64,000 nt of DNA from Brumimicrobium oceani (GTDB taxonomy: Bacteria > Bacteroidota > Bacteroidia > Flavobacteriales_D > Crocinitomicaceae). The notes under the pieces were generated by a model that worked only from the letters and a program-made list of their open reading frames with translations, ran no database searches and was not told the origin of the DNA. A program made the position numbers and the translations under genes. Shown here in pieces: positions 8,869-15,736 of this stretch. The DNA lies in NCBI RefSeq assembly GCF_003143775.1, contig NZ_QFRJ01000003.1, forward strand, positions 57,122-121,121, written 5' to 3'. Position 1 is the first letter of the stretch, and each line of letters begins with the position of its first letter.

Positions 8869-9512
8869 TAGAATAAAGGTAAGGGAAAATAATTATGAAT
8901 GATGAATTATGATGAATGAATTTTTGGGAAAGGTGAAGATTTTGGCGGATGGGCGGTTAGGATATTGGCAAGGATTAGAGGGATTCATAGATTGAACAAT
9001 AATACGGAGAGATAAAATCTTTAGAATTGTTGTTTGACAAGGTGCTTATTCCTGTAAAAAAGAATTACTCGAAGTAATTGGTTCAAATTTTTACTGCGAA
9101 ATTAACTCCGAAGTTTTTCCAAAGTTAGTCCTAAGTCAACTCAACTGTCTGCACTCTGATTCTTTTGATTTTCAGATTTCCTTGATTTTTTGATACTAAC
9201 TCAAAAAAACAACCAAACTTCAGGTAAAACAATCATAGCTTATCATTTAATCACACTAAATCACAGTGCAGATAATTTACTCAACTGTCCGCACTGTGAT
9301 TCTTTTGATTTTCAGATTTACTTGATTTTTTTAATACATACCACTCAAACGTCAAACTCTTCAATAAATCCTTAAACTATCAGATTTAAATAGTTCAATG
9401 TTTTTTGAATCAAGCAATAACAAATTAAAATCCTTCCATTTCTTTTAGACTGGATTCATTTATATTCTGTATCTTCATTTGTAAACTTAACTTAAATCCT
9501 AAAATCACCACC
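8869..9512. other. Gene-free stretch upstream of xseA
   Basis: No gene is supported in these 640 bases. Near xseA is simple ATGAATGATGAATTATGATGAATG sequence of the kind often seen between Bacteroidota genes. The right half carries a direct repeat (annotated separately) and an inverted pair TCACAGTGC (9261-9269) / GCACTGTGA (9291-9299). A 61-codon plus frame overlapping the repeat is rejected as coding. Confidence 0.5.
9140..9336. repeat. Direct repeat, two ~57-bp copies 140 bp apart
   Basis: Copy one at 9140-9196 and copy two at 9280-9336 share CTCAACTGTC, GCACT, TGATTCTTTTGATTTTCAG and CTTGATTTTT in the same order and spacing, with only a few differences. In reverse complement they read like the '...AATCTGAAAATCAAAAGAATCA...' tail repeat found near many Bacteroidota accessory genes. 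Mobility or function is not evident. Confidence 0.75.
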
Positions 9513-10082
9513 ATGAAAAATGACAACATTGGAAAATACCTAAACGACTTCAACTCACTTATTGACACGCCATTTATGAATCTGGACAAGATTGAATGGT
9601 GGCTATTAAAATATGCCGATTTCCATTTTGAAATCACAACGTATTATAGAGACAACAATATAAGTTATTCACCTAATTCGGACATAGAAGCCCACCCGCT
9701 TTACCCACTCATCATTAATCTTCATGCATTTTTAGATTTCTATCATTTTCTAAATGAAATTTCTGAATACGCCAGAAGAGAGGCTTATTTCAAAGAAGAA
9801 ATAAAAGAATATCAGCGTGTAAAAACTTCAAAAGAAAAATCGAAAGAATGGCTGACTAAAAACTTAAAATTTGGACTTGGTCCTTACCCCCAATTTATTA
9901 CAGACGCCAATGCCCTTGAAAACGACGAAATGATTGTGATTCATGAGCAACATGATGTGATTTTTTATTTGGATCGCAAGGACTTCAGCGCTGTGCTGGA
10001 GTTTATTGAAATTTTTGAGGAGGTGGTTTTTGAGAAGGAGTTGGAGGAAAAGGAGTTGGAGGGGTTTTGGGTTGGGGAGTGA
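9513..10082 (+). CDS. Hypothetical acidic protein
   Basis: A 189-residue soluble protein, rich in aromatic and acidic residues, with no signal peptide or membrane segment. It reads as largely helical (LIINLHAFLDFYHFLNEISEYARREAYF, quoted here only as positions about 69-95) and ends in a strongly acidic Glu/Lys-rich tail (about residues 165-189). I recognise no family. A TATCTT-type promoter remnant lies about 50 bases upstream, but it is weak. It sits at the edge of the restriction island, tail-to-tail with the Sau3AI-like gene, so it may be accessory. The antisense frame over its end is only a shadow. Confidence 0.6.
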   Translation: MKNDNIGKYLNDFNSLIDTPFMNLDKIEWWLLKYADFHFEITTYYRDNNISYSPNSDIEAHPLYPLIINLHAFLDFYHFLNEISEYARREAYFKEEIKEYQRVKTSKEKSKEWLTKNLKFGLGPYPQFITDANALENDEMIVIHEQHDVIFYLDRKDFSAVLEFIEIFEEVVFEKELEEKELEGFWVGE

Positions 10083-10208
10083 GAGCAGACAGATTTCCCC
10101 TTTTTTTGTTTCTATAAGTGTCTTATTGAAGAATGAAATAGATGTATAAATAGCAATCCCCAATTAAGAAGATTTCAAAGAAAGATGCTTTCTGAAGCTA
10201 AAAAAAAA

Positions 10209-11735
10209 TCAATAATAGTGCTGTTTAAAAATATTATCCCTCACATAACTTGCGTTCAACCAAAAGCAATGCTTAGTAAATTCAGTTAAACCGGTTAAAA
10301 CATCTTTTACGGGCAATGGATATACATCTTCTTTATTTTGCGCATGAGGTCTAACGTGGCTTATTCTAAATTCCGATTTCTTAGGGAAATGAGTTTTTCT
10401 AATTCCTTTAGAGGTAACCTCTTTGACTATTTTACCAGTGGAAATCAACAATCTCATTCTATCCCATACCGTTTTAGCTTCTAATATATCTGAATAAGGC
10501 ATGTTCCAAAAAGTAGCTTTCCTTAAGACTAACTCTTCACCACTATACTGATAAAAAATAAAGAAAAATTTACTTTCCAATACTGATTTAAACTCAGCGT
10601 CTTCCCAATCTCCAAGAATTAATTCTTCATATTTAAAAGTGGGAAAGGAAATATCCTCTTTTGGCAATAAATTTTCTTTAAGTCTAACTGTTTTTACTTG
10701 AATATCTGCTTTTTCAAACTCCTCTATTTTTTGTCCTAATTTAATACCTAATATGGCTTTTGAAAGATTTGCAAAATAGCTTTTTGCTTTTCTGTTTAAA
10801 TCTAGAGACAAATCATTTTCTATTTCAATTGATGTACATCCATAGAAGGGTTCAAACTTAGAAACTACTACCTCTTCAATAGAAAGCTCATCGGAAATAT
10901 CTTCTGAATTATTTAATACCTTGCCATAAGGTTCGAGGAAATCACTTGCAATACTTGGTAAGTCTTCCCTTTCTAAATATAATGGTTTAATTTTAGACTC
11001 GTTATCTCCAATCTGTTGGTCACGCTTATCTAGTAACTTTCCAAAAACATGTTTTTCATTCTGTGCTATTTTAGCAATTATATGATTTACATAGCCTTGT
11101 TTAAGTGAATAAGCTCTCTGCTTTGCTTTTTCTTCATTAAAAGGTTGTTTTCTATAAGATTTGAGAGCTGTTGAACCTTTGGTGCATGCTCCAAGGTAAA
11201 ATGTATCTCCTTCGGAAAGCTCATGTGCTCTGCCCTCTTTAATTTTCTTGTTTATAAACTCCCAATCCCTTTTAATAATTTTCAAATCTTCTTCAGGATA
11301 TTTCCAGCCATCAACCAATTTTATGAGATAATCTAATAAGTCTGTTTCTTTTTCATGTAAATAAAAAACCAATAAAAGATGTGCATTTTTTTGTAAGAAC
11401 GAACTCGAATCAAACTCTTCTTTATGGACTTCTAAATAGTTAATAATATTTAGAACCAATCTTTCTTTTGAGCGGAACTCTCCATTTTTCAATACCTTTA
11501 ATGGACTTGACTTCAATTCTAGTCCAGCCTCTAAAAAGTCAGGTGCAGCATCAGAATTTGGTTCATATCCAAAATAGAACTTTTCAAGTATTTGACCAAA
11601 ATTTCCTTTTCCTTTATATCCATGTTTTTCAATTGCAGCTCCACAAACCTGCCTTAAAGTTTTGTTTTTAAGTTTTTTAGAAAACTCCACAATAGAGTCC
11701 GCAGAATGGATATCATATTTCAAATCGTTATCCAT
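10209..11735 (-). CDS. Sau3AI/MutH-family type II restriction endonuclease
   Basis: A 508-residue protein, close to the 489 of Sau3AI, which cuts GATC. The N-terminal MutH-like domain shows KGNFGQILEKF and then PDFLEAGLELKSSPL: Glu51, Asp66, Glu73 and Lys75, the same spacing as the MutH E-D-E-K active site. The second half repeats the fold in degenerate form (around FEKADIQVKTVRL, about residues 340-352), as in Sau3AI, where it serves as an allosteric, non-cutting domain. It overlaps the preceding endonuclease gene by 8 bases and shares an operon with a C5 methyltransferase. GATC specificity is inferred from family, not shown. Confidence 0.9.
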   Translation of the reverse strand: MDNDLKYDIHSADSIVEFSKKLKNKTLRQVCGAAIEKHGYKGKGNFGQILEKFYFGYEPNSDAAPDFLEAGLELKSSPLKVLKNGEFRSKERLVLNIINYLEVHKEEFDSSSFLQKNAHLLLVFYLHEKETDLLDYLIKLVDGWKYPEEDLKIIKRDWEFINKKIKEGRAHELSEGDTFYLGACTKGSTALKSYRKQPFNEEKAKQRAYSLKQGYVNHIIAKIAQNEKHVFGKLLDKRDQQIGDNESKIKPLYLEREDLPSIASDFLEPYGKVLNNSEDISDELSIEEVVVSKFEPFYGCTSIEIENDLSLDLNRKAKSYFANLSKAILGIKLGQKIEEFEKADIQVKTVRLKENLLPKEDISFPTFKYEELILGDWEDAEFKSVLESKFFFIFYQYSGEELVLRKATFWNMPYSDILEAKTVWDRMRLLISTGKIVKEVTSKGIRKTHFPKKSEFRISHVRPHAQNKEDVYPLPVKDVLTGLTEFTKHCFWLNASYVRDNIFKQHYY

Positions 11736-12516
11736 TTATTTTTATGTCTAAACCTATTACCCAGACAGGGACTGATATCACTTTTGAAAATTCTTCTAAT
11801 ATTTTTACCGTCTTGTCGAAAGTAACTATACCATCACTTAACATTAATTCTAAATCATTAGTAGGAACAATATATATTAGACAGTCAATAGAATTTTGAA
11901 CATTAGCTTTCAGAACTTTGAAAAGATCCCTATAAACCAAAGCCCAATTTCCAAATTGAATTTCACCCACAATTAGGGGGAACATTGAATCCTCAGCAGG
12001 TAAAGGAATATCAATCCCTAATTTATCTTTTTGTTCTAGCTCTTTGGCAATTATTTTAAGCTCTGGATTTTTATTTAAAAAACTACTCCACTTTAAATCA
12101 CCCTCAAAGTATTGCAATTCACCGAAACAAAGATTCCGCAAAGCAGAAATATTTTTTTTATGATTTAAAATGGCGAAATCAAAACCTCCTATTGCACTCT
12201 TTTCTGAGCTAAAATAAAAAACTCCTTTATCCTCAACAACTTCTAATTTTATATCATTTCTTAAACTATTCTTCAGCAAACTTCTAATCTCACTATTTAA
12301 AACATCAGCTTTAATTCCTCTTAAATTTTTCTTTTGTTGTTTTTTGATACGAGCTTCAATAGGAATTTCTGCTTTAAGTGATTTAATTATTTTATTCTTA
12401 AGATAATCATGTGTATTAAGAATTTCAAAAGCATGATGATGGTAAAATGTATTTCGAACATATAGCCGGCCACTTGTTTTACTCAACCACCTGTCGATCT
12501 CTCTTTTAGTGTTCAT
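11728..12516 (-). CDS. BglII/BstYI-like type II restriction endonuclease
   Basis: A 262-residue protein whose second half follows the BglII/BstYI pattern: AEDSMFPLIVGEIQFGNW, then a DLFK helix, a hydrophobic IYIVP strand and VPVWVIGLD near the end. Asp176, Glu185 and Gln187 have the spacing of BglII Asp84, Glu93 and Gln95, which bind the catalytic metal. The first half (about 1-105) is basic and not recognised. It lies between the methyltransferase (11-base overlap) and the Sau3AI-like gene (8-base overlap), so all three are probably translated together. BglII-fold enzymes cut GATC-centred sites (AGATCT, RGATCY), which fits the neighbour's GATC; the true site is unknown. Confidence 0.75.
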   Translation of the reverse strand: MNTKREIDRWLSKTSGRLYVRNTFYHHHAFEILNTHDYLKNKIIKSLKAEIPIEARIKKQQKKNLRGIKADVLNSEIRSLLKNSLRNDIKLEVVEDKGVFYFSSEKSAIGGFDFAILNHKKNISALRNLCFGELQYFEGDLKWSSFLNKNPELKIIAKELEQKDKLGIDIPLPAEDSMFPLIVGEIQFGNWALVYRDLFKVLKANVQNSIDCLIYIVPTNDLELMLSDGIVTFDKTVKILEEFSKVISVPVWVIGLDIKING

Positions 12517-13747
12517 TTAATATATTTTTATAAAGTTCGACACCTATCTTTTCAATCACACCAACTACTAAAGCATTCCCCATAAAGAAAGCTCTTTTCG
12601 TATCTGATATTCCTTTGAACTCAGTATGGTTATCTGGAAACATATTTAACCTTTCCAATTCTACAGGAGTCAATCTTCGAAGTCCTCTATCCGTTTCAAC
12701 GACATGTTTAAACCTTGAAGGTGATTTACCACCTTCTCCCGTAATTATAGTTCTAGAAGCATTATCAAGTGCGTCTGGATAAATCATTCCTCCCTCACTA
12801 TAATTGTATTCAAAACCATCTTTAGTTGTCCTTTTCTCTTTTTTGGAACCTTTCAAATACTCCCATTTTTTAATATCCTTTTCATCAATGAAGAATTCTT
12901 CTGGTACTTCTCCATTTTGTAAAACATCCTTTAGGACAGTTTTTTCACCTTTATAATTAGGTTCAGTTTTAGTCGTATAGACCTTTCCATTTATAAGTAA
13001 ACCCGTATTTAAAAATGGTGATAGTTTTTTCCCTTTATTAAAATTATCCGTGATTTCTACAAGATCCCCCTCTAATTTAATTTCGTGAATAGAGTTTGTG
13101 GTTTGAACAGGGAACGCATTTGCAATTGTCCCTTCTTCTGATAACCAATTCAATTTATTAGACTTTAGCAGTCTTTTATAAATCGGTGTAGACTTATGGT
13201 ATCCAATAAAAAACACTCTTCTTCGTCTTTGAGGCATTCCATATTCTGCGGCATTAATTACGCGCCACTCAACTGCGTAGCCTAACATATTCAAACTTTG
13301 AAGCATAACTGCAAAATCTCGACCTCGCTGTGTAGCAGGTGATTTCAAAAGACGATCGACATTCTCTAAAAATAAATACTTAGGTTTGTTTTTTTTGTTG
13401 GCTAAAATTTCATGAATCGACCACCAGAGAACACCTTTCTTTCCTATGAGTCCTTTAGAATTGTGTAATGTTGTTGCAACCGAATAGTCCTGACAAGGAA
13501 ACCCACCGACTAATAAGTCATGATCAGGTACTTCTTCTACATTGCGCGTAACAACTTCATTTATATCTTCATTTGAATGATTTTTCTTACCAAATTTATT
13601 CTCATAAACTAATGAAGCGTGTTGCATTTTTGTTGAAGGCTCCCATTGATTGCTCCACACAACTTCATAATTGCTTTTCTCCAACCCGAGTCTAAAACCT
13701 CCAACTCCAGCAAATAATTCAACTACTTTTATTTTATTTTCTCCCAT
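12506..13747 (-). CDS. DNA (cytosine-5)-methyltransferase of a type II R-M system
   Basis: Transfers a methyl group from S-adenosylmethionine to C5 of cytosine in the recognition site, protecting host DNA. All core motifs are visible: motif I VVELFAGVGGFRLGLE (8-23), catalytic GGFPCQDYS with Cys85, motif VI LENV (127-130), motif VIII PQRRRRVFFIGY (172-183), and motif X MGNALVVGVIEKIG near the end. The target-recognition region lies at about 190-350. At 413 residues it matches M.Sau3AI-type enzymes in size, and gene order methyltransferase then endonucleases suits early protection. Its start lies 267 bases from the divergent small gene, with a good promoter between. Confidence 0.95.
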   Translation of the reverse strand: MGENKIKVVELFAGVGGFRLGLEKSNYEVVWSNQWEPSTKMQHASLVYENKFGKKNHSNEDINEVVTRNVEEVPDHDLLVGGFPCQDYSVATTLHNSKGLIGKKGVLWWSIHEILANKKNKPKYLFLENVDRLLKSPATQRGRDFAVMLQSLNMLGYAVEWRVINAAEYGMPQRRRRVFFIGYHKSTPIYKRLLKSNKLNWLSEEGTIANAFPVQTTNSIHEIKLEGDLVEITDNFNKGKKLSPFLNTGLLINGKVYTTKTEPNYKGEKTVLKDVLQNGEVPEEFFIDEKDIKKWEYLKGSKKEKRTTKDGFEYNYSEGGMIYPDALDNASRTIITGEGGKSPSRFKHVVETDRGLRRLTPVELERLNMFPDNHTEFKGISDTKRAFFMGNALVVGVIEKIGVELYKNILNEH

Positions 13748-13803
13748 TCTTATTTACATTGCAGTAATTAATGCTTCTCTGCCTCTCAAAACTAAAACCC
13801 TAA

Positions 13804-13834
13804 AAAAATTATGACCTTTTATTGTTTTTACAAA
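13804..13834 (-). promoter_or_regulatory. Predicted promoter of the R-M operon
   Basis: On the minus strand, TTTG (13831-13834) is followed after 19 bases by TAATTTTT (13804-13811), close to the Bacteroidota -33 TTTG / -7 TAnnTTTG pattern. It lies about 57 bases upstream of the methyltransferase ATG. No separate controller (C) protein gene is seen. Confidence 0.45.
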
Positions 13835-13958
13835 GCTTATCGATATTTTTTTTGGTTAAAAATAACTGATAAGTTCGTGTTATACAAATTGAGACATTTG
13901 CAATTTAAAAATAGTCTACCTCCAATAAATCTTTATCAAAACAACAACTCATAAATAA

Positions 13959-13989
13959 TTGCTTAAAACTTTAAAATTCAGTATATTTA
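13959..13989 (+). promoter_or_regulatory. Predicted promoter of the 81-residue gene
   Basis: TTG at 13959-13961, 20-base spacer, TATATTTA at 13982-13989: a good match to the Bacteroidota vegetative promoter apart from the last base. The ATG of the small downstream gene is 24 bases further on. Confidence 0.5.
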
Positions 13990-14013
13990 CACTCACTCTA
14001 AATTTAAGTAAGT

Positions 14014-14259
14014 ATGTATTCGAACAACAAATTCAACCATCCTTTTTATCAGCTCATGGAATTAAAAGACCAAGAGCTAAAAAATGAATTAACTTCATGG
14101 AGTCGCCTTGAATTAATAGAATGGTTATCTTGGAATGATAGAAACGGCGTTTATAACGATGAGGATTCTTTAAGAGAATTTGACAATATTCTAAAAAAGG
14201 ATCAAGCCATTGAAATTATAACAAGACAAATAAACGAAGGTCGTCCTGTTGAAAGTTAA
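14014..14259 (+). CDS. Small hypothetical protein in the restriction island
   Basis: An 81-residue soluble, acidic, helical protein with many Asn/Glu/Asp and three Trp (SWSRLELIEWLSWNDRNG at the centre). No signal, membrane segment or known domain. The promoter-like TTG-N20-TATATTTA just upstream and normal codon use argue that it is a real gene. It lies between the divergent R-M operon and the convergent HNH nuclease gene, 24 bases from the latter's end. Its role in the island, if any, is unknown. Confidence 0.6.
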   Translation: MYSNNKFNHPFYQLMELKDQELKNELTSWSRLELIEWLSWNDRNGVYNDEDSLREFDNILKKDQAIEIITRQINEGRPVES

Positions 14260-14283
14260 ATTCAAATGAAAGCTTAAGAAACC

Positions 14284-15261
14284 TCACCCCAAAAAACACT
14301 CCCGCCTATGCCACCCCAAATTCTCCTGCAACGGATAAAATCGTTTTTCCAAAGGCAATAAAATCTTCTTGCCTTCAAACTGCTTCAACGAGTAAACCGA
14401 ATCATTTTCAACAATACTTTTAGAAATTCGCACCAAATAATTCTCATCAATGGTGATTAAACCACGGTCGAAGGCACGATGAATTGTTGGGGTTAAGCTA
14501 AATCCATTTCCCACGGTGTCGTCTTGTGAAATTGAAAAGGGTTTTATATGACAGGCATCCACTAATTGTGCGTTAATTGTGGCTTCGATTCGTAATCCTG
14601 AAATTGCGCAGGTGTAATTGTAAAGTTTGGGGATTTCTTTTTTGAAAATTCCGTTTCTCACATAGATTTCTTCTTCAAAATCGCTGACTTTCATTTTACT
14701 TCGCAATTCTGCAATTCTCTCGGCATAGGTTAAACTATCACTCTCTAAAACTTGACTTGCAAGCTGATTGGCAAAATCGTTTTCTGAATTTATCAATCTT
14801 TCTTTTGTTTTCGGGAAGTAATGATTTAATAATTCAGATTTGATTACTTCTCTGGAAATTGGATTTAGCAAAAATGAAAACAACATCTTGTCCATTTCCG
14901 CAAGTTCAATAGCCTCTCTTAAGCCACTAAAAGATGAAATTGTTCTTGGGATAAACGCACCATGTTTGGAGTGGAGTTTCCAAAATCCATCTGATTTCAA
15001 ACGAAAAAATGGCATTGCGAAATTCTGCAAATGATCTGTTTCCACTAGCTTCGACCAAATATCTTTAAAAGACAGCACCAATTCAGGAGAAATGGCAATG
15101 CGGTTGGAAATAATATCTCCATTTTCAATTCCTTCAATAATAGCCAACAACAAAACAGGTTTATGCGGTGCATCGCCCCTCACCTTATTCCTGTCTCGCC
15201 TTAATTTCTTAAGCTGAAATAGGTATTTTGAGATTTGTTCTTCGTTTTCCATAGCTTTCAC
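14284..15261 (-). CDS. HNH endonuclease with a ScoMcrA-like (sulfur-binding-type) N-terminal region
   Basis: A 325-residue protein ending in an HNH nuclease domain: NYTCAISGLRI, DACHIKPFS (His238), then NGFSLTPTIHRAFDRGLI (Asn252, His261). The N-terminal part has APHKPVLLLAIIEGIENGDI (31-50), NRIAISPEL and PFFRLKSDGFWKL, the pattern seen in the DNA sulfur-binding domain of ScoMcrA-type enzymes, which recognise phosphorothioated DNA. That would make it a type IV-like restriction enzyme acting on modified incoming DNA. Only the HNH part is certain; the sulfur-binding role is inference. No dnd or ssp modification genes are in the window. Confidence 0.8.
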   Translation of the reverse strand: MKAMENEEQISKYLFQLKKLRRDRNKVRGDAPHKPVLLLAIIEGIENGDIISNRIAISPELVLSFKDIWSKLVETDHLQNFAMPFFRLKSDGFWKLHSKHGAFIPRTISSFSGLREAIELAEMDKMLFSFLLNPISREVIKSELLNHYFPKTKERLINSENDFANQLASQVLESDSLTYAERIAELRSKMKVSDFEEEIYVRNGIFKKEIPKLYNYTCAISGLRIEATINAQLVDACHIKPFSISQDDTVGNGFSLTPTIHRAFDRGLITIDENYLVRISKSIVENDSVYSLKQFEGKKILLPLEKRFYPLQENLGWHRRECFLG

Positions 15262-15736
15262 AATAATACAAATTAATTAAGAACCCTCTTCCTTCCCTCT
15301 CTCCTCACTCCCTCTCCCTCTCTGCACAACCTCTCCCTCTCCCTCTCCCTCTCCCTCTCCCTTTTATTTTACTTCTCCCTAAGCTTCAGCGCAAACTCTC
15401 CCTCCCAATTTATCGGCTCCCCTGCCCCGACGAAACCAGAAAGCTTGGCGAACACAAAAGCTATTTGAACACGCAAAGAAAGAGCGACTTTAGAAGCTCC
15501 TTTGTTTGGGTTGTTTCAAAAGGATTTGGGGAGGCAACTTGGCGGTGTAGGCGGAAATAGGCCCTAAAAAAAAATGATAAGTAAGAATAAGGTGTTTTCT
15601 AGAATCTCATAATACTTTAGCTGACTCATTTACTGAGGAGTAATTGTTGTTCCTCTTGGAATGCTAGGGTAATTCGTCAATTAATTTTCGCCCATTAGTT
15701 ATTGCCTAAACTCTTTTGAATGTTAAATTTGTAGGA
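15262..15736. other. Gene-free stretch with CTCCCT tandem and dispersed repeat
   Basis: No gene is supported. CTCCCT units are repeated at about 15308-15361. CTTCAGCGCAAACTCTCCCT at 15384-15403 recurs with one change at 21345-21364, directly at the sbcC stop, so it is a dispersed element. The part from about 15419 to 15560 is more GC-rich and of different texture than its surroundings, with broken frames on both strands; it may be a decayed mobile-element remnant, but I could not identify it. Confidence 0.5.

What the first reader, a model, noticed from the sequence alone, without database searches (positions are those of the whole stretch)
10209..13747. One C5 methyltransferase operon with two unrelated restriction endonucleases likely aimed at the same GATC core
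The sequence shows three overlapping genes: methyltransferase (Cys85 PCQ), a BglII/BstYI-like enzyme (Asp176, Glu185, Gln187 at BglII spacing) and a Sau3AI/MutH-like enzyme (Glu51, Asp66, Glu73, Lys75). Known members of both nuclease groups cut GATC or GATC-centred sites, so a single GAT-m5C methylation could protect against both. That would be a layered restriction unit with two different folds; a double-enzyme design with one methylase is unusual and could make phage escape harder.
Basis: partly seen in the sequence, partly recalled or inferred. Interest (0 to 1): 0.78.

Follow-up and report, generated by a model that had tools for sequence, protein, structure and literature searches.

The report
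One DNA methylase shielding two nucleases
A bacterial defence operon carries one DNA-marking enzyme and two structurally different DNA-cutting enzymes that very probably target the same short GATC sequence, and relatives show that this marking enzyme has repeatedly swapped, and occasionally stacked, its cutting partners.

Summary
The three genes are real, overlap by 11 and 8 bases, and look intact. M is a C5-cytosine methyltransferase, B a BstYI/BglII/BamHI-fold endonuclease, S a Sau3AI-family endonuclease above its curated cut-off. One detail is wrong: Asp176 of B is not conserved (6 of 20 rows); the invariant acid is Asp113, with Glu185 and Gln187.

The shared-target idea gains independent support. 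Relatives of M occur with S alone, B alone, or other nucleases. These partners are intermixed on the M tree, while M's target-recognition block stays similarly conserved between S- and B-partnered methylases. Since Sau3AI cuts GATC, and BstYI, BglII and BamHI sites have GATC cores, one GAT-m5C mark most likely protects against both nucleases. This is inference; no site was measured.

The nearest relative of M (G164) has M-S without B, so B was probably inserted between them. B plus S beside one M recurs in Faecalibacillus in another gene order, with distant relatives. Two further M loci stack other nucleases. The kind (a type II GATC system) is known; the two-fold, one-methylase operon and the partner swapping are a new variant. 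Type IIE Sau3AI needs two sites, a BamHI-type dimer one, suggesting complementary coverage, untested.

The parts
12506..13747 (-). M: C5-cytosine DNA methyltransferase, 413 aa, predicted GAT-m5C; presumed recognition block about residues 290-345
   Evidence: PF00145 and TIGR00675; PADLOC MTase_II 591 bits; PCQ in 32 of 32 rows; recognition block shared with Sau3AI-partnered methylases
11728..12516 (-). B: BstYI/BglII/BamHI-fold endonuclease, 262 aa; invariant D113, E185, Q187
   Evidence: PF09195; profile hit to BstYI E 3.4e-8; model pLDDT 86.8, VIA Z 18.5 to BstYI; 15 loci with M and B but no S within 5 kb
10209..11735 (-). S: Sau3AI-family endonuclease, 508 aa, MutH-like N-terminal domain and C-terminal domain both present; E51, D66, E73, K75
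   Evidence: NF040973 499 bits against cut-off 300; 4pxg and 2reu hits cover both domains; catalytic residues 14 of 14

Best explanation
A type II restriction-modification operon in which M methylates the cytosine of GATC (GAT-m5C) and so protects host DNA from both B and S, each of which cuts unmethylated invading DNA at GATC or a GATC-centred site. B was most likely inserted between M and S of an older M-S operon, giving three overlapping genes. S, as a Sau3AI-type (type IIE) enzyme, would need two sites bound; B, as a BamHI-type dimer, would need one. The two could therefore differ in which invaders they cut although one mark protects against both. Shown: genes, families, intactness, partner swapping, shared recognition block, predicted fold of B. 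Inferred: the GATC motif, activity of both nucleases, order of gain, complementary coverage. (The first two rivals below are not exclusive of this statement: its confidence is for the shared GATC-core target under one methylase.)
For: S passes the Sau3AI equivalog cut-off and keeps its catalytic residues. B's model matches only the BstYI/BglII/BamHI/OkrAI group well (Z 13.4-18.5; next row 5.5). On a 32-row M tree the label S needs 6 changes, all 6 forced by starred branches, and B needs 8 (6 forced); for example L009 (B) and L038 (S) are 100/100 sisters. In the M recognition block 290-345 mean identity is 55.9% for B-S pairs, 53.9% for S-S and 61.0% for B-B; L034 (S) and L008 (B) share 50 of 56 residues there. 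M-B without S at 15 loci and M-S without B at 19, of 68 loci compared, partners sought within 5 kb; in 5 of those M-B genomes the whole genome was searched for the Sau3AI family and had none. Nearest relative of M (82%), with an S of 70% identity, is G164: M directly followed by S, no B. S+B recurs in Faecalibacillus. Window B departs at 2 of 88 columns invariant in its 15 close relatives. Sau3AI is named a type IIE enzyme in PMC1892151 (passage seen).
Against: No methylation or cleavage data. GATC is the most under-represented of 16 tetramer palindromes in 341 kb of the host (ratio 0.62), but it is also low (0.65, 0.44, 0.76) in stretches of same-genus genomes in which M, B and S were not found, so this does not discriminate. 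No six-base GATC site is distinctively rare. The exact M-B-S order was seen once. Window S departs at 12 of 185 columns invariant in 8 relatives, more than 7 of those 8 rows (0-8) and fewer than L135 (41). Window B has a long end branch (0.59 against 0.088 for L005, on a tree whose bootstrap had not settled), which could mean a shifted specificity. The window/G164 pairing on the M tree is not starred, so loss of B elsewhere is not excluded.
Confidence: 0.72

Rival explanations
1. Transitional state of nuclease swapping: B displaces S (or the reverse), both happen to be present now, and one is redundant and on its way out. The operon is a snapshot of turnover, not a selected two-nuclease defence. 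(Not exclusive of the shared target.)
For: Partners change often on the M tree; B+S loci are rare (3 of 68, two of them near-identical; 1 of 40 M places in the even class sample); the nearest relatives have one nuclease; G019 shows an M-S system in decay (M fragment); window B has a long end branch.
Against: Both window nucleases keep nearly all conserved positions and S its catalytic residues; stacking recurs in other loci: Faecalibacillus M/S/B/Vsr, Planomicrobium B/Vsr/M/Y, G410 M/Dam/REase/S.
Confidence: 0.35
2. B recognises a longer GATC-centred site (RGATCY, AGATCT or the like), so its targets are a subset of those of S and of M; protection holds but B adds only a different mode of cutting. 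(Not exclusive of the shared GATC core.)
For: The solved structures that B resembles best cut six-base GATC-centred sites (BstYI RGATCY, BglII AGATCT, BamHI and OkrAI GGATCC; sites recalled; structures).
Against: B alternates with the four-base cutter S beside closely similar methylases, which would over-methylate for a six-base cutter; no six-base GATC site is distinctively avoided in the host (weak).
Confidence: 0.4
3. B belongs with another specificity and another methylase, and sits beside M by chance.
For: No direct assay; long branch of window B.
Against: 15 loci, over Bacteroidota, Ignavibacteriota and Campylobacterota, have B next to M and no S nearby.
Confidence: 0.05

Closest known systems
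Sau3AI restriction-modification system (M.Sau3AI and R.Sau3AI, GATC)
   Same: S passes the NF040973 cut-off; M shares its recognition block with methylases encoded beside annotated Sau3AI-family endonucleases on plasmids
   Different: A second, unrelated nuclease gene lies between methylase and Sau3AI-type nuclease
BstYI / BglII / BamHI endonucleases (PF09195 and relatives)
   Same: Fold, E-x-Q catalytic pair as in BglII (Q in place of K in BglII: PMC4081073, passage seen), GATC-centred group
   Different: About 70 residues, including four predicted helices, between the invariant Asp and the ExQ strand; partner is a C5 methylase, whereas those of BglII, BamHI and BstYI are N4-cytosine methylases (recalled)
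SsuDAT1I of Streptococcus suis (GATC, two endonucleases with two methylases; gene content recalled, original paper not held; only its existence as a type II system seen in a passage of PMC5198162)
   Same: Two nucleases for one GATC target in one locus (recalled)
   Different: Adenine methylases, two of them, and other nuclease families (recalled)

Membership tests
Sau3AI-family type II endonuclease (S) | Score above the curated NF040973 cut-off | tested here: met
   499.4 bits against 300
Sau3AI-family type II endonuclease (S) | MutH-like catalytic residues and both domains present | tested here: met
   E51, D66, E73, K75 in 14 of 14 rows; N- and C-terminal stretches match 4pxg and 2reu; the catalytic role of these residues is recalled
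Sau3AI-family type II endonuclease (S) | Cuts unmethylated GATC | not testable with these tools
   needs purified protein
BglII/BstYI/BamHI group (B) | PF09195 above gathering score | tested here: met
   38.4 bits against 26, residues 185-257 only
BglII/BstYI/BamHI group (B) | Same fold | tested here: met
   predicted model: BstYI Z 18.5, rmsd 2.4, 164 aligned; BglII 16.8; BamHI 15.3
BglII/BstYI/BamHI group (B) | Asp at BglII spacing before ExQ (Asp176) | tested here: not met
   D in 6 of 20 rows; D113 is in 20 of 20. BamHI has another spacing again (recalled), so I treat the spacing as a mark of BglII itself, not of the group: B works like this group but is not filed as a BglII
BglII/BstYI/BamHI group (B) | Cuts a GATC-centred site | not testable with these tools
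   inferred from fold and methylase partner
C5-cytosine methyltransferase with GATC specificity (M) | PF00145, PCQ and ENV motifs | tested here: met
   PCQ and ENV in 32 of 32 rows
C5-cytosine methyltransferase with GATC specificity (M) | Same recognition block as Sau3AI-partnered methylases | tested here: met
   12 invariant residues in block 290-345 over 31 rows, L047 left out; same block as plasmid Sau3AI-type systems. That this stretch is the recognition block is inferred from its place in the enzyme class
C5-cytosine methyltransferase with GATC specificity (M) | Methylates GAT-m5C | not testable with these tools
   needs bisulfite, EM-seq or nanopore data
SsuDAT1I-like two-nuclease GATC system | Adenine methylases | tested here: not met
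   the only methylase found among the genes examined at this locus is the C5 enzyme M; SsuDAT1I content recalled

The most novel reading that the evidence does not exclude
A lineage of GAT-m5C methylases acts as a shared antidote to which nucleases of different folds are exchanged and stacked; in the window a two-site (type IIE) cutter and a single-site cutter are placed under one self-mark, so that DNA with few sites, or a phage inhibitor or base change that stops one fold, still meets the other.
Probability: 0.3. Interest if true: 0.7.

Novelty: new variant of a known kind. Interest (0 to 1): 0.52.

Why it matters
Restriction systems are usually drawn as fixed methylase-nuclease pairs. Here close relatives of one methylase keep the same recognition block while their nucleases change between unrelated folds (Sau3AI/MutH, BstYI/BglII and others), and in a few loci two nucleases are held at once. 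It makes a general question testable: does one self-mark license several weapons, and does stacking them widen phage coverage or only record turnover? It also gives a way to propose sites for unassigned nucleases (the X, Y and B families) from the methylase they sit beside.

Tried and rejected
Asp176 as B's catalytic residue: rejected by alignment. GATC avoidance as evidence for the target: non-discriminating, since it is also seen in same-genus genomes where M, B and S were not found. Viral contigs: S gave no relative; B one (L002); M three. B in PLSDB plasmids: none at E 0.01. B among 59 relatives: 1, the own genome. Rfam at 9000-15500, gathering threshold: none. Promoter and terminator scan: no more hits than in shuffles. 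Nuclease X (201-204 aa): no Pfam match above a cut-off (one at E 0.15), no PDB sequence match at E 10, two weak PADLOC hits at E 0.02 and 0.05. Literature: no paper describing a BglII-type plus Sau3AI-type pair under one methylase appeared among the titles listed. Some of those lists were capped (8 of 46, 8 of 46, 8 of 84 and 8 of 37 shown), the library holds open-licence papers only, and REBASE was not available, so absence from print is not claimed. Papers were seen as passages only: PMC5608340, PMC4081073, PMC2292703, PMC13355661, PMC1892151, PMC5198162.

Limits of the counts: the 68 loci come from searches seeded with window proteins and are not a random sample; L022 and L023 are near-identical; L035 (broken M) and L163 (M fragment) are counted under S. 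The only even sample is, with 40 M places in 37 of 395 class genomes. With these divide into S 11, Y 4, B 1, X 1, S+B 1 (the window) and 22 with none of S, B, X or Y within 5 kb. 'None' does not exclude other nucleases, and L146 and L154 lie at contig ends. Rows dropped: L035 (broken M) and the viral rows L067-L069 from the M trees; L017, L044 and L047 from the second M tree; L047 (split S) from both S trees; L046 and the cut-off S of L134 from the second S tree; L005 (ambiguous residues) from the structure alignment. The second M tree used 18 of the 34 stretches fetched.
Full report
Observation. The three genes lie on the minus strand at the stated coordinates and overlap by 11 and 8 bases. 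M (413 aa) is a C5-cytosine methyltransferase (PF00145; TIGR00675; a PADLOC type II methylase model at 591 bits). B (262 aa) hits Pfam BglII at 38.4 bits over residues 185-257. S (508 aa) scores 499 bits for the Sau3AI equivalog family (cut-off 300) and matches the Sau3AI structure over both domains.

Correction of a residue. In an alignment of 20 B rows, the window included, Asp176 is D in 6 rows, a gap in 5 and another letter in 9, while D113, E185 and Q187 are in all 20. In the predicted model (mean pLDDT 86.8, 19-row alignment), D113 lies on strand 112-116 and E185 on strand 182-186, with four predicted helices between them. I did not measure the distance between the two residues, because I had no model coordinates. 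The fold is nevertheless clear: VIA-align gives BstYI Z 18.5 (rmsd 2.4, 164 residues), BglII 16.8, BamHI 15.3 and OkrAI 13.9, and the next row outside this group is 5.5. A profile of the family finds BstYI by sequence at E 3.4e-8. A Gln in place of the usual Lys is known from BglII (PMC4081073, passage seen).

Relatives. A scan of the species-genome collection with B returned 19 loci. Fifteen (L005-L019; Bacteroidota, an Ignavibacteriota and a Sulfurovum) have M next to B and no S in the locus. For five of them the whole genome was searched for the Sau3AI family and had no match. One (L020) is a contig end. L021 (Planomicrobium) has B, a Vsr-type repair endonuclease, M, and a protein 53% identical to the BglII-class nuclease Y described below; about 8 kb beyond M it also has a protein with a sub-threshold match to the C-terminal half of the Sau3AI family (169 bits). 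L022 and L023 (Faecalibacillus faecis and a Bacillota MAG, near-identical) have M on the opposite strand, then S, B and Vsr; these are distant relatives (M 42%, S 37-38%, B 32% identity to the window). Vsr repairs T:G mismatches that arise from m5C (recalled), which fits a C5 methylase. Over all 68 M or B loci that I compared, the nuclease partners within 5 kb are: S 19, B 15, Y 4, X 3, B+S 3, B+Y 1, none of these 22, and one locus without M. Y is a 202-213 aa protein that passes the Pfam BglII cut-off in 3 of 3 tested. X is a 201-204 aa protein of unknown family with a DEKAQ motif. L136 (genome G410) carries M, a D12-class adenine methylase, a 431 aa protein with a 459-bit PADLOC type II endonuclease match, and S; the same genome has an M-B pair on another contig.

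Even sample. In 395 class genomes, 37 have M at E <= 1e-60, at 40 places. All 40 were examined: S 11, Y 4, B 1, X 1, S+B 1 (the window), none of these 22. So the stacked arrangement is rare, and many M genes, mostly in families f21 and f22, look like solitary methylases. Within the window's genus the operon is isolated: neither M, nor B, nor S was found in any of 9 other species, which suggests horizontal acquisition.

Shared target. The argument for GATC rests on partner exchange, not on the name of a family. On a 32-row M tree the label S needs 6 changes, all 6 forced by well-supported branches, and B needs 8 (6 forced); L009 (B) and L038 (S) are 100/100 sisters. On a larger quick tree of 47 rows the intermixing remains (S 9 changes, 7 forced; B 13, 7 forced). 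In residues 290-345, the presumed target-recognition block, B-S pairs average 55.9% identity, S-S pairs 53.9% and B-B pairs 61.0%; L034 (S) and L008 (B) share 50 of 56 residues, and the window shares 44 of 59 with L038 (S). Methylases beside annotated Sau3AI-family endonucleases on plasmids have the same block. If the block sets specificity, as the variable region does in this enzyme class (established knowledge), then the methylase beside B has the specificity of the one beside S. Sau3AI cuts GATC and is blocked by GAT-m5C (PMC5608340, passages seen). That BstYI, BglII and BamHI sites all contain GATC is recalled.

How the triple arose. S of the window groups with S of G164 and G019 (100/99 support). 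M of the window is nearest to G164's M (82%), and G164 has S (70%) directly after M with no B (L130). B of the window is nearest to B of L005 (65%; fork support 83/77), a locus with M-B only. The simplest history is an M-S operon that received B between its two genes. The M-tree placement is not strongly supported, and loss of B in G164 and G019 is possible.

Are both nucleases alive? Window B departs from its 15 close relatives at 2 of 88 otherwise invariant columns (A to V, F to L); the other rows depart at 0 to 5. S departs from 8 relatives at 12 of 185; those rows depart at 0 to 8, except L135 with 41. Catalytic residues of S are intact in 14 of 14 rows. Window B has a long end branch (0.59 against 0.088 for L005; the bootstrap of that tree had not settled), so a shift in fine specificity, or relaxed selection, is possible.

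Mechanism. M would mark GATC as GAT-m5C. Unmarked incoming DNA would be cut by S, which as a Sau3AI-type enzyme is classed type IIE, active only with a second site bound (PMC1892151, passage seen), and by B, a BamHI-fold enzyme expected to act as a dimer at a single site (recalled for BamHI). This offers a reason for keeping both: DNA with isolated sites, or an inhibitor that fits only one fold. That step is inference. The main rival is that the operon is a snapshot of nuclease turnover.

Weak or negative tests. GATC is under-represented in the host (0.62 of expectation, lowest of 16 palindromes, 341 kb) but also in stretches of same-genus genomes where M, B and S were not found (0.65 in G004, 0.44 in G007, 0.76 in G006 and G002 together), so this does not identify the target. 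No RNA family and no convincing promoter or terminator was found.

Verdict. A real, intact-looking, unusual type II GATC system: a known kind in a new variant.

Noticed in passing
L067:6001-7596 and L068:4666-6966: In two viral contigs of 308 and 355 kb, M is interrupted in frame exactly at its catalytic Cys85 by intein-like inserts of 132 and 363 aa that begin CLTGDT and end HN before CQDYS.
   Followed up: partly
L002:3809-7295: A viral contig carries a B relative between an HNH nuclease and a GHKL-type ATPase with no M relative in the 10.7 kb held; possibly a different kind of system. GHKL ATPases in restriction operons are described in PMC2292703 (passages seen).
   Followed up: partly
L058:6093-6707, L059:6080-6694, L060:7587-8192: A 201-204 aa protein (X) of no known family sits next to a close relative of M in three genomes; its GxDL...DEKAQ pattern suggests an undescribed PD-(D/E)xK nuclease for GATC.
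   Followed up: partly
L021:7971-12851: Planomicrobium soli: B, Vsr, M and a second, Y-type nuclease relative in one locus, another stacked arrangement.
   Followed up: partly
L136:2391-7158: G410 contig 123: C5 methylase M, D12 adenine methylase, a 431 aa type II endonuclease match and S in one block; the same genome has an M-B pair elsewhere.
   Followed up: partly
L138, L140, L142, L144-L162 (mostly families f21 and f22): 22 of 40 M places in the class sample have none of the nucleases S, B, X or Y within 5 kb, suggesting a widely kept solitary GATC C5 methylase.
   Followed up: partly
window 14284-15261, minus strand: An HNH nuclease gene upstream of M with a sub-threshold match (121 bits, cut-off 180) to the phosphorothioate-DNA-binding restriction endonuclease family.
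   Followed up: no
L130:1269-1577, L132:5560-5895, L005:6367-6708 and others: A 102-113 aa helix-turn-helix gene overlaps the start of M in several relatives, like a controller protein; no such ORF of 80 aa or more lies upstream of M in the window.
   Followed up: no
L163:5935-8873: In a same-family genome (G019) the M-S system is in decay: an M fragment, other ORFs, then an S 70% identical to that of the window.
   Followed up: no
G001-G009 (same genus): None of the three genes was found in 9 other species of the genus, yet GATC is under-represented in the four sampled; another cause of GATC avoidance must exist there.
   Followed up: no
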